From positions 1-29,359 of IMG/VR virus record IMGVR_UViG_3300044492_000105: a stretch of 29,359 nucleotides of DNA; one strand, written 5' to 3'. The notes below the pieces were generated by a model. The model ran no database searches, had not been told where the DNA came from, and saw only the letters and a program-made list of their open reading frames with translations. Shown here piece by piece: positions 515-9,765 of the stretch (position 1 is the first letter of the stretch; each line of letters starts with the position of its first letter). Source of the stretch: a virus. The position numbers and the translations under genes were made by a program.

Positions 515-2947
515 ATGGCCGAGACCACCTACTCCAAGGGCGACGATCTTCCGCAGGTAACACCCGCGAGCCCCGAGGCCGACCGCCCGGATCGCCCCGA
601 GGTCGCCGCGTCCGACGCGCAGGAAGTGGATACCAGTTTCTGGGAGAAAGCCCTCGCCGACGCCGAGCGTGCCGAAAAGGACTGGCGCACAAGGGGCCGC
701 GAGATCGTCCAGATTTACCGGGGCGATATCCCGATCACCCGCCCCAAGGCGGGCAAGACCGTAAGTTCGAGCAGGCAGGGGCAATCTTCCACGTTCAACA
801 TCCTCTACGCCAACACCGAAGTCATGCTTCCGGCGGCGTACTCCAAGCCGCCCGATCCGGTGGTTAGGAGCCGTTTCGTCAAGAAATCGGCGATGCCGCC
901 CATGCCCATGCCGATGATGCCCCCGGGCATGGGTGGTCCTCCGCCGGGAATGATGCCTCCTCCCGGAGCAGGCCCCCTGCCTCCGGGCGCGGGCCCCCCG
1001 GGTGAACCTTCCGCGTCGATGGGCCCCGGAGGCCCGGCGATGCCGCTGGCTCCACCCGGGGGCCCGATGCCCCCTCCACCGCAATCTCCGGGCGGCGTCC
1101 CCCTACCCCAGCCGTCGGGAGTAGGGCCTCCGCCGGGAGATGCCCCCGGTGGGGGCCCGCCCATGTCGCTCCCTCCGGGAGCTGGCGGGGCTCCGCCTTC
1201 ACCTCCGCCCGTGGGCCCGCAGACCGTCCCCCAACCGGCCCCCATGCCGCCCGGCATGCCGCGCCAGCAGGATATCGACACCGCCGCTGCCGTGATGGAG
1301 AAGGCGCTGGAGATCGTGGTGGCCGACGAGGCTTCGCATGAAGCGGTGAAAGCTGCCGTCAGGGACATGCTGTTGCCGGGGCGCGGGATTTGTCGCGTCC
1401 GCTGGAAGCCCGTGCTCAAGCAAATCCCGGTCGAGGACCCGATCATGGGAGGCCCGCTTGCGCACCCGGTGACCGGCGAGCCCCAGATGAAGGACGCGAA
1501 AATCTGGGAGACGGTCGATGATGAGTATGTGTTCTGGGAGGACATCCTCATCGACCCCGTGCGCCAGCACGGCGACGTCGAATGGATCGCGTTCCGGCAT
1601 CTGTTCGCTGAAAAAGCCCTTCTCTCGGAGTTCGGCGACAGCGAGAAACTGCAATCTTACCAGAAAGACGGCAAGTTATCGGAGCTGCTGAAATGGACCG
1701 AGGAGAGCGCGGCCAAGTCCCCCGTCGGTGGTGGCCCTTCGACAAAGGCGTCCGGAAAGCTCGACAGCGTTGTGCGGAAGGCGATGGTCTGGGAAATCTG
1801 GAACCGCTCGACCCGCGAAGTGCTCTGGATCATACGCGAAGGTGGCGGCTGCGCGTTGCGCGTCGATCCCGACGTTCTGGGCTTGGAGGGCTTCTACCCC
1901 ATTCCGAAGCCGATCTATGCCGTGGTCACGACCGAGACCATGATCCCGAAGGCGTTCTATGACCTGTACGCCCATCTCGCCGCCGATCTGGACGACACTT
2001 CTCGGCGTATCAGTGATCTTACGGCAAAAATCAAAGTCCGTGGCGGCTACAATGCGGCGAACGCGGACATTGCGAACCTTCTTACGGCTGATGACGGCAA
2101 GCTGCTGCCTGTGGACGGCGTCGATCTTATGTCTGGCGGCCTGCAAAATCACATCTGGCTTGTCCCGATACTTGAGTGGGTCAACGCGCTCAAAGAACTC
2201 TACATGAGCCGCGACCAGCAGAAGAACGCGATCTACGAGATCATCGGCATCGCCGACATCGTCCGGGGCGCAACCAACCCCTACGAAACCGCCACCGCGC
2301 AGCGCATGAAGGGCACGATCGGTGCCGGAAGAATGCAGGGCGTGCAGCAGTCCGTCGCGAACTTCGTAAGAGACCTGATGCGGCTGAAGTCCGACATCAT
2401 CGCCAAGAATTTCGATGCCGAGACGCTCACCCGCATGACCGGCGAGAACGTCACCCCTGACATCATGGACATCCTGCGCAACGATTTCTCGCGGATGTGC
2501 TCCATCAACATCGAGACCGACAGCACCGTGCAGGCCGACGAGGCCACCGAAAAAGAAGCCAACGCGCAGATCATGCAGGTGATCGGCGGCACGATGCAAG
2601 CCGCGCAGGGCCTGATGATGACCGGTATCCTGCCGCCGCCGATGATCCTCAACATGACCCTCGAAATGATCAAGATGCTGCTGCATCCGGTCCGCCACTC
2701 CAGAGGCGTGATCGACATGGTGGACGGCTATCAGGAGATGCTGGGGGCTTACATGAAGATGGACCCGACGGGTGCCATGATGCGGCCTCCCGCCCCGCCT
2801 CCCCCGGGACAGGGTGGAGGGCCCCCCGGAGCCCCGCCGGGCCCCTCCAGAGGCCAGAACGGCAAGGGACCTCCCAAACCCGCCCCGACCCAAGCCCCCG
2901 CACCGATGGGCGCGGGAGGGCCTCCGCCACCGCCCGGAGTGATGTGA
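515..2947 (+). CDS. Portal protein (podovirus type) with Pro/Gly/Met-rich insertion
   Basis: Dodecameric portals form the head vertex through which DNA is packaged and ejected. The 810-residue protein has the layout of short-tail phage portals: an N-terminal domain (about residues 38-125), then a core with VEWIAFRHLF, MIPKAFYDLY, and the long helical region around LEWVNALKELYMSRDQQKNA, IIGIADIVRGATNPYETATA and RMQGVQQSVANFVRDLMRLK. Size and place (after terminase, before scaffold and capsid) fit. Two regions are odd: residues about 127-250 are an almost pure Pro/Gly/Met/Ala stretch inserted between the N-terminal domain and the helix starting QQDIDTAAAV, and the last 55 or so residues have similar composition. 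These are probably disordered surface segments. The ATG directly follows the upstream TAG; AAGGA at 506-510 is the likely ribosome binding site. Confidence 0.88.
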   Translation: MAETTYSKGDDLPQVTPASPEADRPDRPEVAASDAQEVDTSFWEKALADAERAEKDWRTRGREIVQIYRGDIPITRPKAGKTVSSSRQGQSSTFNILYANTEVMLPAAYSKPPDPVVRSRFVKKSAMPPMPMPMMPPGMGGPPPGMMPPPGAGPLPPGAGPPGEPSASMGPGGPAMPLAPPGGPMPPPPQSPGGVPLPQPSGVGPPPGDAPGGGPPMSLPPGAGGAPPSPPPVGPQTVPQPAPMPPGMPRQQDIDTAAAVMEKALEIVVADEASHEAVKAAVRDMLLPGRGICRVRWKPVLKQIPVEDPIMGGPLAHPVTGEPQMKDAKIWETVDDEYVFWEDILIDPVRQHGDVEWIAFRHLFAEKALLSEFGDSEKLQSYQKDGKLSELLKWTEESAAKSPVGGGPSTKASGKLDSVVRKAMVWEIWNRSTREVLWIIREGGGCALRVDPDVLGLEGFYPIPKPIYAVVTTETMIPKAFYDLYAHLAADLDDTSRRISDLTAKIKVRGGYNAANADIANLLTADDGKLLPVDGVDLMSGGLQNHIWLVPILEWVNALKELYMSRDQQKNAIYEIIGIADIVRGATNPYETATAQRMKGTIGAGRMQGVQQSVANFVRDLMRLKSDIIAKNFDAETLTRMTGENVTPDIMDILRNDFSRMCSINIETDSTVQADEATEKEANAQIMQVIGGTMQAAQGLMMTGILPPPMILNMTLEMIKMLLHPVRHSRGVIDMVDGYQEMLGAYMKMDPTGAMMRPPAPPPPGQGGGPPGAPPGPSRGQNGKGPPKPAPTQAPAPMGAGGPPPPPGVM

Positions 2948-2948
2948 C

Positions 2949-3344
2949 ATGAGGCCCAAGCCCAAACCCAAGGCAGCCAAGATCGTCGCCAAGCGCGCTA
3001 TCCCGAAACCCAAGCCGAAGGAGAGACCGATGGTTGAAGTCAAGAAGCCCGATCCCGCCCCGCCGCCACCTGCCGTCAAGAGCCCGGCCCCGGCCAACAC
3101 CACCTACTCGCCCGACCCTGCCGCGCCGACCGCGTTCGCGGTGGTGCCGGAGGACATGCTGACCGAGCAGGAAAAGGACACCGCGAGCGAGGTCCCCGGC
3201 GTCGGCCCCGCCAGCGCCTCCGAGGTCTCTCCGGGCCCCGTCGAGACGATGGAGGACCTTGGGATAGGCCCCCGCACGCCCTACCCCGAGGGCTCCCCGC
3301 CGGTTGCCGCCGACGCTGCCGTGAAGAAGGACCCGACCCGATGA
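2949..3344 (+). CDS. Lys/Pro-rich small protein, unknown function
   Basis: A 131-residue protein, one base after the portal stop. The first 28 residues are highly basic (MRPKPKPKAAKIVAKR...), followed by Pro/Ala-rich disorder and an acidic segment with EDMLTEQEKDTASEV. GGAG at 2936-2939 serves the ATG at 2949. A second in-frame ATG at 3030 (protein MVEVKKPD...) has an even better AAGGAGAG site six bases upstream, so a 104-residue product lacking the basic head may also, or only, be made. No domain is recognised; predicted to be largely disordered. It overlaps the next gene by ATGA. Its place in the head cluster suggests a structural accessory, but function is unknown. Confidence 0.68.
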   Translation: MRPKPKPKAAKIVAKRAIPKPKPKERPMVEVKKPDPAPPPPAVKSPAPANTTYSPDPAAPTAFAVVPEDMLTEQEKDTASEVPGVGPASASEVSPGPVETMEDLGIGPRTPYPEGSPPVAADAAVKKDPTR

Positions 3345-3952
3345 GCATGGTCCGGTATCCTCTTCCCATCACCAACGCGATGCTGGCGAAGGCCAACATC
3401 CACGAGGGCAAGCCGCGTTACGACAGCGCCCCTAATGTCGCCGCCGACTGGCACGGCGGCGATTTCGGTCAGGACGTGGACATCGCGGAAGCGACCCAGT
3501 CCATCGCCAACTGCCACTCCGCCGCCGTCGGCACCGATTACGACCCGCAGCATCAGGAGGGCAAGGGCAAGAACATGACCCCGAAGCTCACCCCGCTCGC
3601 GGATATCGGCAAGGACTACGGGGCCTATAGCGGCAGCTCCTACCGCAGCGGACCGATCGAGCCCCGCGCGCCCTACCCGGACAAGACCTCGCCGCCCGTC
3701 GTGTCGGCGGTGAGCCCGAACTCGGGCCTCGCCGCAGGCGGCCTCGCCATCACGGTCACGGGCGCGGGCTTCACCGGGGCCACGGGTGTCACCATCGGCG
3801 GCACGCCCGCAACCGCCGTGGTCGTGGTGAACTCCTACACCATCACGGCAGTCACCCCGGCCAAAACGGCGGGCACCTACGACGTCCGCGTCACCACGCC
3901 CAACGGCACCAGCGCCATCGGCGGTGCCGCCGACAACTTCGTGTACGCATGA
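3341..3952 (+). CDS. Head-cluster protein with C-terminal IPT/TIG Ig-like domain
   Basis: A 203-residue protein starting in an ATGA overlap with the previous gene. Residues 1-115 are unrecognised (MSMVRYPLPITNAMLAKAN...). Residues about 118-203 read as one IPT/TIG immunoglobulin-like domain: PPVVSAVSPNSGLAAGG, then ITVTGAGFTGATGVTIGG, TPATAVVVVNSYTITAVTP and GTYDVRVTTPNGTS, the standard order of strands and Gly turns of that fold. Ig-like domains are often displayed on phage heads and tails, where they bind carbohydrates or the cell surface. Between portal and capsid genes, a head decoration or fibre role is likely but unproven. No signal peptide. Confidence 0.75.
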   Translation: MSMVRYPLPITNAMLAKANIHEGKPRYDSAPNVAADWHGGDFGQDVDIAEATQSIANCHSAAVGTDYDPQHQEGKGKNMTPKLTPLADIGKDYGAYSGSSYRSGPIEPRAPYPDKTSPPVVSAVSPNSGLAAGGLAITVTGAGFTGATGVTIGGTPATAVVVVNSYTITAVTPAKTAGTYDVRVTTPNGTSAIGGAADNFVYA

Positions 3953-4218
3953 GCGGATCGGCCAGACCGAACGACCAGATGCACCTGCCGGGCCTCGGCG
4001 TCCCCGTGGACCCGTGGACCGGCTTCGTGCTGAAGCCCGTCGTCACCGAACGCCTCAAGCGGCTCAAGGAGGCTGAGCGGGTTTTCCGCGCGGTCCTCCA
4101 CGAATTGGACGGAACCACCGAGGGCTCGATGCCGGGCAACCGCCAGATGGCGCTGGCTTTCACGGCGCTGGATCAAACACGGCTGTGGGCGGCGGCCTCG
4201 ATCATCGAGAGTAGCTGA
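3949..4218 (+). CDS. Acb2/Tad1 hairpin-family protein, candidate cyclic-nucleotide sponge
   Basis: An 89-residue protein overlapping the previous gene by ATGA. Residues about 38-87 are two predicted helices: RLKRLKEAERVFRAVLHEL, a short loop with PGNR, then ALAFTALDQTRLWAAASII. The second helix matches the Acb2/Tad1 hairpin pattern as I remember it (Arg, then Leu-Ala-x-Thr-x-Leu-Glu/Asp-x2-x-Met/Leu-Trp-Ala-x3-Ile). Characterised members of that family are about 90 residues and oligomerise to sequester cyclic di- and trinucleotides or gcADPR signals, blocking CBASS and Thoeris. The first 35 residues (HLPGLGVPVDPWTGFVLKP) are an extended Pro/Gly-rich arm. Finding it between virion genes is unusual. 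Family call is by motif memory, not by search; sponge activity is inference. Confidence 0.62.
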   Translation: MSGSARPNDQMHLPGLGVPVDPWTGFVLKPVVTERLKRLKEAERVFRAVLHELDGTTEGSMPGNRQMALAFTALDQTRLWAAASIIESS

Positions 4219-4220
4219 AG

Positions 4221-4508
4221 ATGCCGGTCTATGTCTTCTACGAGGGCCGCCTGATCGAGAAGCGATACAAGCCCTCGCAGCCCCAGCACGCGCGCAGCGA
4301 CCTCCCAGCGCCCGCCGTGCAGGGCTTCGAAGCCTACGCCAGCCCCATCGACGCGCGCACCATTTCGTCGCACCGCCAGCGCGACAGGGACTTGCATAAT
4401 TCCGGCAGCTACGACAAACGCGACACCCCCGCAGAGTTCAGGAGAGCCCAAGATGGCAGGCGAAAATTCGCAAAACGGAGCGCCGCCGAGCCTCCGCGAT
4501 ATAGCTGA
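4221..4508 (+). CDS. Small conserved-type phage protein, unknown function
   Basis: A 95-residue protein starting MPVYVFYEGRLIEKRY, an opening typical of small proteins found between portal and capsid genes in short-tail phages. The middle SPIDARTISSHRQRDRDLHN and the tail TPAEFRRAQDGRRKF are strongly basic and hydrophilic. It begins two bases after the previous stop with only a weak ribosome binding site, suggesting translational coupling. Its last 56 bases overlap the scaffold gene, which carries its own AGGAGAG signal inside this gene. No enzyme motif or membrane segment is visible, so no function is assigned. Confidence 0.68.
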   Translation: MPVYVFYEGRLIEKRYKPSQPQHARSDLPAPAVQGFEAYASPIDARTISSHRQRDRDLHNSGSYDKRDTPAEFRRAQDGRRKFAKRSAAEPPRYS

Positions 4509-5679
4509 GCAGGCCTACGACGATCTCGAAGAAGGTGCCGAGGCCCAAGCCTCCGAGGCCCCGTCCGAGGGCCCGGGCGAGGGCCCGGTCGAAGGGGCTG
4601 CCGAAGAAACCCTTGGACAAGACGACCGACCGCGCGATAAAAGCGGGCGTTGGGTGTCCAAATCGGAGGGTACCCAGCCGGGTGAAGCAATCGAGCCCCT
4701 CGATCCAGCCCCGAAACCAAAAATTGAAGTCCAGAAGCCGCCAACTGATCCAGCCGCTGCACAAGTAACACCCGCAGCGCGAAGCAATCAGGTCCCGGAG
4801 CACTGGAGCGCGGAAGACAAGGCGACGTTCGCCAAGCTGCCGAAAGAGGGCCAGCAATTCCTCCTGAAGCGGCACGGCGATATGGAAGCCGAGTTCACGC
4901 GCAAGTCACAGGCGAGTGCGGGAGCAGTCCAGTTCACGCAGGCGCTTGCGCCGGTCTTCAACGACCCGCAGATCGCGCAGTCGTTGAAAGCAGCGGGGGT
5001 TCATCCGGTTCAGGCGATCCAAGAATGGGCCTCGTGGCACAGGATGGGAACGTCGCCGAACCAAGAGGATAAATTCAAGCTGCTGGTAGGGCTGACGCAA
5101 CGCATGGGGCTGGACCCAGCGCGCATTTTCTCCGCTTTGAACCAGCCGCCGTCGGCGACTTCGATGGGTCTCTCGGAAGAGGACCTGAAGGACCCGGCGG
5201 TTAAATTCATCGCCGACCATCTCGGCAAGACGCAAAGCAAGCTCGACGCCATCGAGCGGAGCCAGCAGCAAAGAGAACAGCAGGAGCATCAGGCCCGTGC
5301 TGTCCAAGGTGTCAGGTATGCTAGGTCGAACATCGACGGTTTCGCGGACGAGAAGTCAAAGGACGGACGCCAGCTCCGCCCCCACTTCGACGCCGTGCTG
5401 CCGCTCATCATCGACATGTTCAAGGCCAATCCAAACAGGAACTTGGCCGAGGCCTACGACACCGCCTGCTGGGCTCACCCGGAAGTCAGGAAGCAACTGC
5501 TCGCGGCGGAACACTACCGCACGCAGTCGCAGTCTGACGTCGCCCGGGCCCGCATCGCGCAACGGGGCAACACGCGGGGGATCACCACCCCCGTCGCACG
5601 CCCCAACGGCGCGGACGGGCCCTCGAAGGGCAGCCTGCGGGATACGCTGGAGCGTTCTGCCGACGAGGTTGGTTTCTGA
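4453..5679 (+). CDS. Scaffolding protein
   Basis: The 408-residue product is placed directly before the major capsid gene and has the make-up of a capsid scaffold: an acidic disordered N-terminus (residues about 20-110), a conserved patch PEHWSAEDKATFAKLPKEG followed by LLKRHGDMEAEFTRK, a helical centre with a coiled-coil-like Gln/Glu stretch (ERSQQQREQQEHQ), and a basic helix-rich C-terminus that would bind the capsid protein. Scaffolds guide procapsid assembly and then leave or are degraded. The start ATG has AGGAGAG six bases upstream (4440-4446), inside the end of the preceding gene. The stop is 17 bases before the capsid start. Confidence 0.82.
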   Translation: MAGENSQNGAPPSLRDIAEQAYDDLEEGAEAQASEAPSEGPGEGPVEGAAEETLGQDDRPRDKSGRWVSKSEGTQPGEAIEPLDPAPKPKIEVQKPPTDPAAAQVTPAARSNQVPEHWSAEDKATFAKLPKEGQQFLLKRHGDMEAEFTRKSQASAGAVQFTQALAPVFNDPQIAQSLKAAGVHPVQAIQEWASWHRMGTSPNQEDKFKLLVGLTQRMGLDPARIFSALNQPPSATSMGLSEEDLKDPAVKFIADHLGKTQSKLDAIERSQQQREQQEHQARAVQGVRYARSNIDGFADEKSKDGRQLRPHFDAVLPLIIDMFKANPNRNLAEAYDTACWAHPEVRKQLLAAEHYRTQSQSDVARARIAQRGNTRGITTPVARPNGADGPSKGSLRDTLERSADEVGF

Positions 5680-5696: not shown

Positions 5697-6650
5697 ATGG
5701 CCGAACCTACCGTCACGCAACTCGTCGCGACCACGATCCAGAACTATCACAAGCAGTTCGCCGATAACGTCTCCAACTCGAATGCCGTGACGGCCCTTCT
5801 TCGCGAAGGCAACCGGGTTCGCGTCATCGAGGGAGGCCGCGCGATTGCCTGCCCGCTTACTTACGCAGAAGAGACCTTCGCGTGGTACCTCGGGACCGAA
5901 TTGCTTTCCCGGGCCACCAAGGAGACCATCTCCGAGGCTCACTACGACCCGGCGAACGCCGTGGCCTCAGTGACCCTCTCGGGCCCTGATCTGGCCAAGA
6001 ACCGCTCGCGAGAGCGCATCCTCAACCTTCTGGAAGGCAAGCTCGACAACGCCGAAGCCACCATGAAGAACAACATCACCAAAGCAGTCTACGGCGACGG
6101 TACCGTTGCAAAATCATTCGTGGGCCTCAAGGGCTTCGTCACCGCCGACGGCCTCGGCACCATCGGCGGCATCGACGCCGGGACGTGGACCTTCTGGAAG
6201 AACCAGTTCCAAGTGGTCGCCCGCGCCACGGGCCTTCAGTATCCCGCGCTCAAGGCGGGCATGAACGCGCTGTGGATGAAGCTGATCCGTGGCGCAGAAA
6301 AGCCCGACCTGATCGTCGCCGACGGCGAAATCTACTCCACTTACGAAAGTGGGCTTCAGGAGAACCAGCGGTACGCCGACGCGAAGCTCGGCGCGCTTGG
6401 TTTTGAAACCTTGAAGTACAAGACCGCGCCGCTGGTGTTCGACGGTGCTGCGACGGGTATCACCGGAGCCTACTACCTCAACACCAAGTACATGAAGTTC
6501 GAGATTTACTCGGGACGCAATTTCGAGGCCCTCGACCTTCCCGACCAGAGCCCCGACATGGACGCTGTCACCAAGCACATGGCGTTCATGGGAGCCCTGA
6601 CGCTGTCCAACCGCGCGATGCAGGGCAGGCTGACGGCTTCCGGCACCTGA
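5697..6650 (+). CDS. Major capsid protein
   Basis: A 317-residue protein with a good AGGAG site before ATG. It follows the scaffold gene and matches the HK97-fold capsid proteins of short-tail phages: N-terminal helix MAEPTVTQLVATTIQNYHKQ, an E-loop-like segment with IACPLTYAEETFAWYLG, a central region PALKAGMNALWMKLI and PDLIVADGEIYSTYESGLQE, and a C-terminal end TKYMKFEIYSGRNFEALDLP then MAFMGALTLSNRAMQGRL, which is the usual capsid ending (the protein notes that it names the last strands of the A domain). It would form the head shell. A terminator-like hairpin follows at 6659-6693, which fits a gene needing more transcript than its downstream neighbours. Confidence 0.88.
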   Translation: MAEPTVTQLVATTIQNYHKQFADNVSNSNAVTALLREGNRVRVIEGGRAIACPLTYAEETFAWYLGTELLSRATKETISEAHYDPANAVASVTLSGPDLAKNRSRERILNLLEGKLDNAEATMKNNITKAVYGDGTVAKSFVGLKGFVTADGLGTIGGIDAGTWTFWKNQFQVVARATGLQYPALKAGMNALWMKLIRGAEKPDLIVADGEIYSTYESGLQENQRYADAKLGALGFETLKYKTAPLVFDGAATGITGAYYLNTKYMKFEIYSGRNFEALDLPDQSPDMDAVTKHMAFMGALTLSNRAMQGRLTASGT

Positions 6651-7691: not shown

Positions 7692-9277
7692 AGATGTTCC
7701 CCGCCGGAGCCTTGCCGCTCAAAAATCGCCGGGGTACGCCGACGCGGCTTCTCAACAAGGGTCGCCCGGCGGCGAAGGTCGCGCACTTCAGCGCGCCGCT
7801 GAAAGGGCTCTCCAAGTTTGCTGAACTCAGCGAGACCGACCCGATGCTGGCGTCGATCCTGACCAACTGGCTCCCGCTCGACGACCGCATTGCCGTGAGG
7901 CCCGGCTACATCAAGCTGGGGCAAATTGCTGCAAATACCCCGGTCTCGACGCTCGTGCCCTACTACGGCAGCGCCACGCATAAATTGGCGGCGGCCTCTG
8001 GCGGCAAGTTCTACGACACCGCAGGCGTCGTGATCGGGCCCGGGCCCTATGGCGGCGATGACTGGGCGTGGATTTCGTATAGCGACTTAGGTGCCACCGA
8101 TTACACCTTGATGGTCAACGGCCACGACGGCGTGGTCTCGTGGGACGGGACGACGTTCACCGCTGAAGTCATTACCGTCCCCACCGCCGAGACGTGGATC
8201 AACCCGCTGCGGTTCGATAAAGTTCTTTCGCACATGAACCGGCTGTGGTTCGCCGACAGCGACAACCTCGCGGTCTACTATCTCCCCATCGGCCAAAAAG
8301 CCGGGGCCGTCGAGCTGTTTCCGCTCGATGTGCTGTTCAAGCGCGGCGGTCACATCGAGGCCCTGCATACATGGTCGATGGACGGCGGCACCGGCCTCGA
8401 CGACGCGCTGGTGATCTTCTCCAGCAACGGCGAGGCGGTGATCTACAGCGGCGTTGACCCCGAAAGCGATTTCAAGCTGGTCGGCATCTTCCGCTTTGAC
8501 GCGCCGATGTCGCACAACAGCGTGCTGAACTTCGGCGGCGATCTCTATGTCATGATCGCGACGGGCCTCGTGCCGATGACGACACTCATTCGTGCCGAGG
8601 TGGAGAACCTCGGCAAGTCCGACATGAGTGTCATGGACGAGTTCCAGACCATCGCGAAGACCAACCGCGACAGCTTCGGGTGGCAGGTCATCCTCAACAG
8701 CCAGACCGGGCACGCGATCTGCAACATGCCGCTCAACAACGGCAAGTACCAGCAGATGGTACGGAAGATGCCGGGGCAAATCTGGGCGAAATGGTCTGAC
8801 ATTCCCGCGCGGTGCTGGGGCTGGCTCAACAACCATACTTATTTTGGCGATGATTTCGGCGGCATCTTTTTGGGTGGGACCGAGTATCTCAGCGACAACG
8901 GCAAGGCCATCGAGGCCGACGTGCGCTTCGCGTGGAGCGGCTACAAGAGCGTCGCCAAGAAACAGTTCAAGATGGTGCGGCTCTACACCCTGACCGACGG
9001 TCTGGTGCGGCCCTTCATCGACATGGAGGTGGACTACGACACCACCCGCCCGACCAACCAGCCCGAAGTGTCCACAGCACCTGCGGGCGATGCCGTCTGG
9101 GACGTCGCGATCTGGGACGTGGACTATTGGGCCCTCAACGCGGTGCCACGGCAAAACTGGCAGGGTGTCACGGGCCTCGGACGCGTGGGGGCTCCGCGCA
9201 TCCGCGCCAGCATCCTCGGCTGCACCTACGCGATAACGGGCATCGACGTGATCTACGAACCGGGAGGGCTGATGTGA
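7688..9277 (+). CDS. Tail hub / DNA stabilisation protein (P22 gp10-like)
   Basis: The 529-residue product follows the gp4-like adaptor by an ATGA overlap. It is rich in beta strands with Trp/Tyr/Gly turns (LVPYYGSATHKLAAASGGKF, YTLMVNGHDGVVSWDGTTF, HMNRLWFADSDNLAVYYLPI, DALVIFSSNGEAVIYSG), the repeating blades typical of gp10-type hub proteins that close the portal channel and hold tail appendages. Later segments with WSDIPARCWGWLNNHTYFG and RFAWSGYKSVAKKQFKMVRL fit the same family. A second in-frame ATG two codons on (7694) is an alternative start. In P22-like tails this protein carries fibre attachment sites, consistent with the fibre genes downstream. Confidence 0.8.
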   Translation: MKMFPAGALPLKNRRGTPTRLLNKGRPAAKVAHFSAPLKGLSKFAELSETDPMLASILTNWLPLDDRIAVRPGYIKLGQIAANTPVSTLVPYYGSATHKLAAASGGKFYDTAGVVIGPGPYGGDDWAWISYSDLGATDYTLMVNGHDGVVSWDGTTFTAEVITVPTAETWINPLRFDKVLSHMNRLWFADSDNLAVYYLPIGQKAGAVELFPLDVLFKRGGHIEALHTWSMDGGTGLDDALVIFSSNGEAVIYSGVDPESDFKLVGIFRFDAPMSHNSVLNFGGDLYVMIATGLVPMTTLIRAEVENLGKSDMSVMDEFQTIAKTNRDSFGWQVILNSQTGHAICNMPLNNGKYQQMVRKMPGQIWAKWSDIPARCWGWLNNHTYFGDDFGGIFLGGTEYLSDNGKAIEADVRFAWSGYKSVAKKQFKMVRLYTLTDGLVRPFIDMEVDYDTTRPTNQPEVSTAPAGDAVWDVAIWDVDYWALNAVPRQNWQGVTGLGRVGAPRIRASILGCTYAITGIDVIYEPGGLM

Positions 9278-9765
9278 AAATTCATTTCGGCGATCTCCCC
9301 GAGGACGCGCAGGCGATGCTGACGAACCACCTTCGCGTGGACTTCCGGCATTGCGACTTCAGGGCCCCGCGCTGGTTCTCGGCGTGGGCCCGTAATATCC
9401 ACGGCAATATAGCGGGCATCTTCGCCATCGAATTTCCGTTCTGGTTCGAGGGCCGCGTGACCATCATGGTGCTCGACCCCCGCTGCATGTCGCGAAGAGT
9501 GCTGCGCGCGATCTTCACGGCGGCTTTTACGCAGGCAAGGCGGCTTACCGCCGAAGTCGAGCCGGATAACCGCCGGGCCCTGCGGCAAGTGCAGCGGCTG
9601 GGATTTATTTACGAGGGCTATCGCCGTCTCGGGCTCGAAGGCTCGCGCGACACGCTTGTCTACGGCATGCTGAAGGACGACTGCAAATATCTCCCGGGCT
9701 ATAAGGGCCCGACCGTGATCGCCAACCCGACGTTGTCTGCCGACGTCTACGAGCGAGTACACTGA
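9274..9765 (+). CDS. GNAT-family N-acetyltransferase
   Basis: I place the start at GTG 9274, which overlaps the preceding stop (GTGA) and has GGGAGGG five bases upstream; the open frame upstream of it only overlaps the hub gene. The 163-residue protein has the GNAT ending LTAEVEPDNRRALRQVQRLG with FIYEGYRR, where the Asn-rich loop and following helix hold acetyl-CoA's pantetheine and the last strands shape the substrate site. It would transfer an acetyl group to an unknown amine. Small GNAT genes are frequent next to tail genes in short-tail phages; the target (a virion protein, a host protein or a defence factor) is not known. Confidence 0.75.
   Translation: MKIHFGDLPEDAQAMLTNHLRVDFRHCDFRAPRWFSAWARNIHGNIAGIFAIEFPFWFEGRVTIMVLDPRCMSRRVLRAIFTAAFTQARRLTAEVEPDNRRALRQVQRLGFIYEGYRRLGLEGSRDTLVYGMLKDDCKYLPGYKGPTVIANPTLSADVYERVH

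What the first reader, a model, noticed from the sequence alone, without database searches (positions are those of the whole stretch)
3949..4218. Acb2/Tad1-like cyclic-nucleotide sponge candidate in the head operon
The 89-residue protein has the helix-loop-helix with PGNR, then a Leu-Ala-x-Thr-x-Leu-Asp-x2-x-Leu-Trp-Ala pattern that I associate with the Acb2/Tad1 hairpin family. Known members bind CBASS or Thoeris signal nucleotides. Here the gene is coupled (ATGA) to an Ig-domain gene and lies before the scaffold, so it would be made late with the virion, or even be packaged. The N-terminal Pro/Gly-rich arm differs from the versions I know. That combination would be a new context for anti-CBASS activity.
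Basis: partly seen in the sequence, partly recalled or inferred. Interest (0 to 1): 0.82.

Follow-up and report, generated by a model that had tools for sequence, protein, structure and literature searches.

The report
Acb2/Tad1-hairpin gene in phage head operon
A small gene in the capsid-building operon of an uncultured phage encodes a helical-hairpin protein related to viral 'sponges' that mop up bacterial alarm nucleotides; the kinship is real, but it belongs to a distinct, untested branch with its own N-terminal arm, so the sponge function is likely but not shown.

Summary
The 89-aa protein matches Pfam PF24729 (Acb2/Tad1 hairpin) just over the curated cut-off (27.4 vs 27 bits); relatives reach 35.6 bits. 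An independent profile of known hairpin proteins scores 31 of 35 homologues above 7,035 shuffled or reversed controls. AlphaFold gives a confident two-helix hairpin; Foldseek ranks solved Acb2 first, though not significantly. The match misses the profile's start, where proven Acb2 proteins carry the nucleotide-stacking tyrosine; that position is not conserved here (Glu 8, His 7, aromatic 8, Gln 1 of 24). Arg65 and Thr72 of the shared hairpin are kept. A conserved N-terminal arm (RPNDQMxLPGLGVPVDPxTG) is specific to this branch. The gene sits before the scaffold in every close relative readable there (26 records plus the window); diverged forms sit there in more distant ones. Two relatives lacking it carry other PF24729 types, one in the same slot, one overlapping the terminase gene. 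That pattern favours a counter-defence role over a fixed head part. A cyclic-nucleotide sponge is my best reading (0.55). Ligand binding, oligomer and virion packaging are untested.

The parts
3949..4218 (+). Arm-plus-hairpin protein, 89 aa; PF24729 match residues 36-85; helices 30-54 and 65-88; N-terminal arm 6-25
3341..3952 (+). 203-aa protein with C-terminal IPT/TIG (Ig-like) domain, overlaps the hairpin gene by ATGA
2949..3344 (+). 131-aa proline-rich protein with conserved GIGPRTPYPxGxPP motif, same operon
4221..4508 (+). 95-aa conserved small protein directly downstream (2 bp gap); a homologue lies next to the scaffold in all relatives examined, also those without the hairpin
4453..5679 (+). 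putative scaffold, by position and conservation only; no family match
5697..6650 (+). major head protein (phrog_9953), the anchor used to find relatives
515..2947 (+). portal protein (phrog_12082)

Best explanation
A phage counter-defence protein of the Acb2/Tad1 hairpin superfamily. Inferred mechanism: the two-helix hairpin oligomerises, probably as a hexamer as in Acb2 and Tad1, and binds cyclic-nucleotide alarm signals without cutting them, so that CBASS or similar effectors are not switched on. The shared hairpin features (Arg at the start of helix 2, Thr72, Trp80) are kept while the tyrosine of the cyclic-dinucleotide pocket is not, so I predict a cyclic trinucleotide (cA3, cAAG) or another ligand rather than 3',3'-cGAMP. 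The gene would be made with the late head genes, when capsid protein accumulates. The conserved arm may add a branch-specific contact, to another subunit, a virion part or the ligand. Shown: fold prediction, homology, synteny, selection, gene replacement. Inferred: oligomer, ligand, timing, function.
For: PF24729 over cut-off for P0001 and for all seven long relatives tested, to 35.6 bits; 31 of 35 homologues match at E<=0.1. hhalign of the family against 13 known or PF24729 hairpin proteins: probability 96%, E 5e-9. Home-made profile: 31 of 35 real sequences above the best of 7,035 shuffled or reversed ones (P0001 18.1, best control 9.3). Foldseek: 8 of the top 9 PDB rows are T4 Vs.4 or Acb2, again first with a deeper alignment. 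Gene replacement: L116 has a different PF24729 protein (44.9 bits) in the very same slot, and G008, with an empty slot, has another PF24729 gene (44.3 bits) overlapping the terminase gene; the seven genomes with the arm type have one match each. Such swapping within one superfamily is what a counter-defence role predicts. R65 is kept in 32 of 35 and T72 in 29 of 35; T72 aligns with T4 Acb2 T68, whose change to Met lowers binding (PMC12657230).
Against: No binding data. The PF24729 match starts at profile position 13 and omits the segment holding T4 Y8 / PaMx33 Y11, where proven Acb2 proteins match from position 1; Y8A abolishes Acb2 function (PMC12657218, PMC12657230). The equivalent position is Phe here but Glu in 8 of 24 close relatives, and not aromatic in the diverged clade. 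The most conserved parts are the arm and the hairpin loop (pN/pS 0.08 and 0.13), not the helices. The gene is fixed in one place in every close relative, as a structural gene would be. PHROGs links it to phrog_1454 (unknown function), not phrog_717 of the proven Acb2 proteins.
Confidence: 0.55

Rival explanations
1. Head-assembly or internal virion protein: the hairpin domain was co-opted for capsid building, and the invariant arm docks on portal, scaffold or shell; no nucleotide is bound.
For: Fixed position between portal and scaffold in all close relatives; arm far more constrained than the helices; invariant His51 and Gly55 and near-invariant Met67 at the hairpin tip, which the known Acb2 proteins lack; tyrosine of the Acb2 pocket not kept.
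Against: Not needed for this head type: Mx8, BUCT555, ppBjS10J-1, 45A6 and ctMlz233 with homologous portal and head protein have no PF24729 gene, and G010 and G011 (head protein 80% identical) have none detected. Swapped for other hairpin types in L116 and G008.
Confidence: 0.25
2. Sponge with classical dinucleotide specificity (3',3'-cGAMP type), with F26 and arm residues such as W23 replacing the Tyr of T4 Acb2; specificity varies among relatives by changes at 26-34 and in helix 2.
For: VIA alignment pairs model 20-88 with T4 Vs.4 2-84, which puts F26 near Y8; aromatic residue or His at 26 in 15 of 24; K40 (T4 K23) is Lys or Arg in 21 of 24; variable linker and helix 2.
Against: Glu at 26 in 8 of 24, and both W23 and F26 lost in several relatives; fold scores are not significant for helical hairpins.
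Confidence: 0.15
3. Chance resemblance of a short amphipathic helical hairpin to the Acb2/Tad1 profile.
For: P0001 itself is only 0.4 bits over the Pfam cut-off; many helical hairpins give similar VIA Z.
Against: Homologues score higher, hhalign E 5e-9, shuffled and reversed controls far below.
Confidence: 0.03

Closest known systems
Acb2 (T4 Vs.4; Pseudomonas phage PaMx33/PaMx41 gp24), PF24729, phrog_717
   Same: Length (88-93 aa), C-terminal helical hairpin with a T-x-[LI]...WA-type second helix (W in T4), Arg at the start of helix 2 (as in PaMx33), Thr72 = T4 T68
   Different: No match to the first 12 profile positions with the stacking Tyr; 20-residue conserved arm instead of a short N-terminal helix; own invariant loop HxLDG...GSxPGxR; gene in the head operon, whereas T4 vs.4 and PaMx41 orf24 lie outside the head genes
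Tad1 (cbTad1 7uav, CmTad1 8kbb/8kbd)
   Same: Shares the C-terminal two-helix hairpin (VIA Z 5.3 over 47-48 residues)
   Different: No N-terminal four-strand beta domain; about 25-35 residues shorter
phrog_1454-type hairpin proteins of actinophages (e.g. Marshawn gp5, Sparky gp92); such proteins are called cyclic oligonucleotide sequestering by homology only
   Same: Closest PHROG; PGR-x-x-ALA-x-T-x-LE-x-x-x-x-WA helix
   Different: They keep the Fx[YFH]HP aromatic motif at the start and lack the arm
FNPS-type hairpin proteins (L116; Providencia phage PS3; Flavobacterium phages)
   Same: PF24729; the L116 copy occupies the same operon slot; the PS3 copy lies among internal virion protein genes
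   Different: No arm; no clear sequence similarity outside the hairpin

Membership tests
Pfam PF24729 Acb2/Tad1 hairpin | Score over the curated gathering cut-off (27 bits) | tested here: met
   27.4 bits for P0001; relatives 27.3-35.6 bits
Pfam PF24729 Acb2/Tad1 hairpin | Two antiparallel helices | tested here: met
   AlphaFold helices 30-54 and 65-88, block pLDDT about 85-95
Acb2 (phrog_717 / proven Acb2) | Full-length profile match including the N-terminal segment | tested here: not met
   P0001 matches positions 13-56 of 58; T4 and PaMx33 match 1-58; phrog_717 not hit by P0001
Acb2 | Stacking Tyr (T4 Y8 / PaMx33 Y11) of the dinucleotide pocket | tested here: inconclusive
   Phe26 in this protein by position, but Glu, His or Gln in 16 of 24 close relatives; alignment of this segment is uncertain
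Acb2 | Structural similarity to solved Acb2 | tested here: inconclusive
   Acb2 ranks first in Foldseek but E 1-3; VIA Z 6.5-6.7, rmsd 2.6-3.1 over 63-67 residues, tied with unrelated hairpins
Acb2 | Homohexamer | not testable with these tools
   only single chains can be predicted here
Acb2 / Tad1 | Binds cyclic oligonucleotides and blocks CBASS | not testable with these tools
   needs ITC or gel shift and a plaque assay
Tad1 | N-terminal antiparallel beta domain before the hairpin | tested here: not met
   no strand of 3 or more residues in either model; only about 28 residues precede helix 1; Tad1 anatomy from PMC12043709

The most novel reading that the evidence does not exclude
A head-operon hairpin branch whose arm anchors the sponge to the virion or procapsid, so that the phage brings or concentrates a trinucleotide sponge at the place where capsid triggers immunity; one of several interchangeable sponge types held by one phage lineage.
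Probability: 0.12. Interest if true: 0.85.

Novelty: new variant of a known kind. Interest (0 to 1): 0.52.

Why it matters
If it is a sponge, anti-CBASS proteins include a large uncharacterised branch built into the late head operon of environmental phages related in head genes to Myxococcus phage Mx8, with an altered ligand pocket and a new arm. The lineage also gives a natural experiment: three hairpin types exchanged in one phage group, which would let ligand specificity be mapped against sequence. If it is a head protein instead, Pfam-based calls of 'anti-CBASS' for hairpin proteins would need caution.

Tried and rejected
Chance resemblance: rejected by shuffle/reversal control and hhalign. 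Direct BLAST to PaMx33 Acb2: no significant similarity. Sequence search of PDB with the single sequence and an alignment found only designed helical proteins and other unrelated chains, no sponge. Fold search alone: Acb2 ranks first but unrelated hairpins tie on Z, so it was not used as proof. PADLOC and NCBIfam: no match for P0001. Host or prophage relatives: the one genome-contig hit (L145) looks like a chance match in a non-coding frame; no plasmid match; so the host is unknown. No sigma-70-like promoter between 2800 and 6800, which chance also gives; a separate early promoter for the gene is unsupported but not excluded. The original Acb2 structure papers (Huiting 2023, Cao 2024) are not held here, so exact ligand contacts, including any role for PaMx33 R67, were not verified.

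Full report
Observation. The ORF at 3949-4218 (+) encodes 89 residues, MSGSARPNDQMHLPGLGVPVDPWTGFVLKPVVTERLKRLKEAERVFRAVLHELDGTTEGSMPGNRQMALAFTALDQTRLWAAASIIESS. Its ATG overlaps the stop of the TIG-domain gene 3341-3952 as ATGA, and a 95-aa gene starts 2 bp after its stop. The operon runs portal (515-2947), 131-aa proline-rich protein, TIG protein, this gene, 95-aa protein, putative scaffold, major head protein.

Family. hmmscan gives one Pfam family, PF24729 Acb2/Tad1 hairpin, 27.4 bits against a cut-off of 27, residues 36-85 on profile positions 13-56. The single score is marginal, so I tested the family. Searches of viral contigs gave 19 loci by the protein family itself and 80 loci by the major head protein. 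Seven long relatives each hold one PF24729 match over the cut-off, 27.3 to 35.6 bits. Of 35 aligned homologues (A3), 31 match PF24729 at E<=0.1, best 1.2e-10. A profile-profile comparison with 13 hairpin proteins including T4 Vs.4 and PaMx33 Acb2 gives probability 96%, E 5e-9. A home-made profile of those 13 scores 31 of the 35 above all 7,035 shuffled or reversed versions (best control 9.3 bits; P0001 18.1). I regard homology as established.

Fold. With 6 and then 35 aligned sequences AlphaFold predicts helices 30-54 and 65-88 with high confidence and a poorly defined arm. VIA-align gives Z 6.5-6.7, rmsd 2.6-3.1 over 63-67 residues, tied with unrelated hairpins. This agrees with the family call but does not prove it. 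Viral models annotated 'Acb2/Tad1 hairpin domain-containing' take ranks 2 to 9 in BFVD, also without significant E-values.

What is different. Proven Acb2 proteins match PF24729 from position 1 (T4 71.4 bits, PaMx33 66.1); that first segment carries the Tyr whose loss abolishes function (T4 Y8; PMC12657218, PMC12657230). In this branch the segment is replaced by the arm RPNDQMxLPGLGVPVDPxTG. By structure alignment residue 26 falls near Y8, but among 24 close relatives it is Glu 8, His 7, Phe 5, Tyr 2, Trp 1, Gln 1. Kept are Arg65 (32 of 35; aligned by eye with PaMx33 R67), Thr72 (29 of 35; aligned with T4 T68, whose Met change lowers binding per PMC12657230) and Trp80 in the close clade. His51 and Gly55 are invariant in all 35. 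pN/pS among 12 close relatives is 0.08 for the arm, 0.13 for the loop, 0.30 for helix 1, 0.54 for helix 2 and 0.63 for the linker. PHROGs places the branch near phrog_1454, not phrog_717 of the proven Acb2 proteins. There is no beta domain as in Tad1.

Context and evolution. In the 26 distinct database records, plus the window, with a strong match (over 130 bits), the gene lies between the TIG gene and the 95-aa gene before the scaffold; these are all the relatives with a major head protein about 87% identical or more that show the region. In about 15 further loci (79-86%) a diverged form, often starting MxGPRD and ending SRRMSIAATxLE..ALMxARKAALE, sits at the same place. A smaller set has none there: L108, L109, L110 and L113 (near-identical), L116, L121, L122. 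L116 has in the same slot a 75-aa protein of another type (YRVGISFNPS...), PF24729 at 44.9 bits. G008, the genome of L110, has a third type (FEYHNP...) at 44.3 bits overlapping the start of the putative terminase gene. G010 and G011 have none detected, nor do Mx8, BUCT555, ppBjS10J-1, 45A6 and ctMlz233, which share portal and head protein. So the head does not need the protein, but the lineage mostly keeps one hairpin protein and exchanges types. I read this as selection for a counter-defence activity; it is inference.

Mechanism. Acb2 and Tad1 form hexamers and hold cyclic trinucleotides at the trimer interface and dinucleotides (or gcADPR) in separate pockets (review PMC12043709). The present branch keeps the hairpin shared by both and not the dinucleotide tyrosine; hence the prediction of a trinucleotide or other ligand. 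Late synthesis would coincide with capsid production; capsid mutations help acb2-deleted phage escape CBASS (PMC10419184) and the head protein triggers Thoeris (PMC12043709). The rival, a virion or assembly part docking through the arm, remains open at about 0.25.

Novelty. Hairpin genes near structural or packaging genes exist elsewhere: Marshawn gp5 before the terminase genes, Providencia phage PS3 among internal virion protein genes, G008 at the terminase. By contrast T4 vs.4 and PaMx41 orf24 lie outside the head genes. I found no paper naming PF24729. I therefore file it as a new variant of a known kind, with the function untested.

Noticed in passing
window 2949-3344 and relatives between portal and scaffold: A PYPxG motif (usually GIGPRTPYPxGxPP) recurs in small proteins of this stretch: 54 occurrences inside, 1 in all other forward ORFs of the same loci. 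Most are one orthologous gene, but several different proteins carry it, as if a shared docking motif.
   Followed up: partly
L116 4955-5182; G008 contig 32729-32947 (minus): Two other PF24729 types in the same phage lineage, one in the same operon slot and one overlapping the putative terminase gene.
   Followed up: partly
L128 4992-5189 (Providencia phage PS3): A PF24729-like protein (23.9 bits, under cut-off) lies between internal virion protein B and the internal core protein.
   Followed up: no
L108, L109, L110, L113, L121, L122 between portal and scaffold: This stretch is an insertion zone in relatives: a chitinase/lysozyme-like protein and short membrane-like proteins appear there, judged from the sequence only.
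   Followed up: no
window 8932-9765: Weak GNAT acetyltransferase match; Mx8, BUCT555 and ppBjS10J-1 also have an annotated acetyltransferase next to the tail genes.
   Followed up: no
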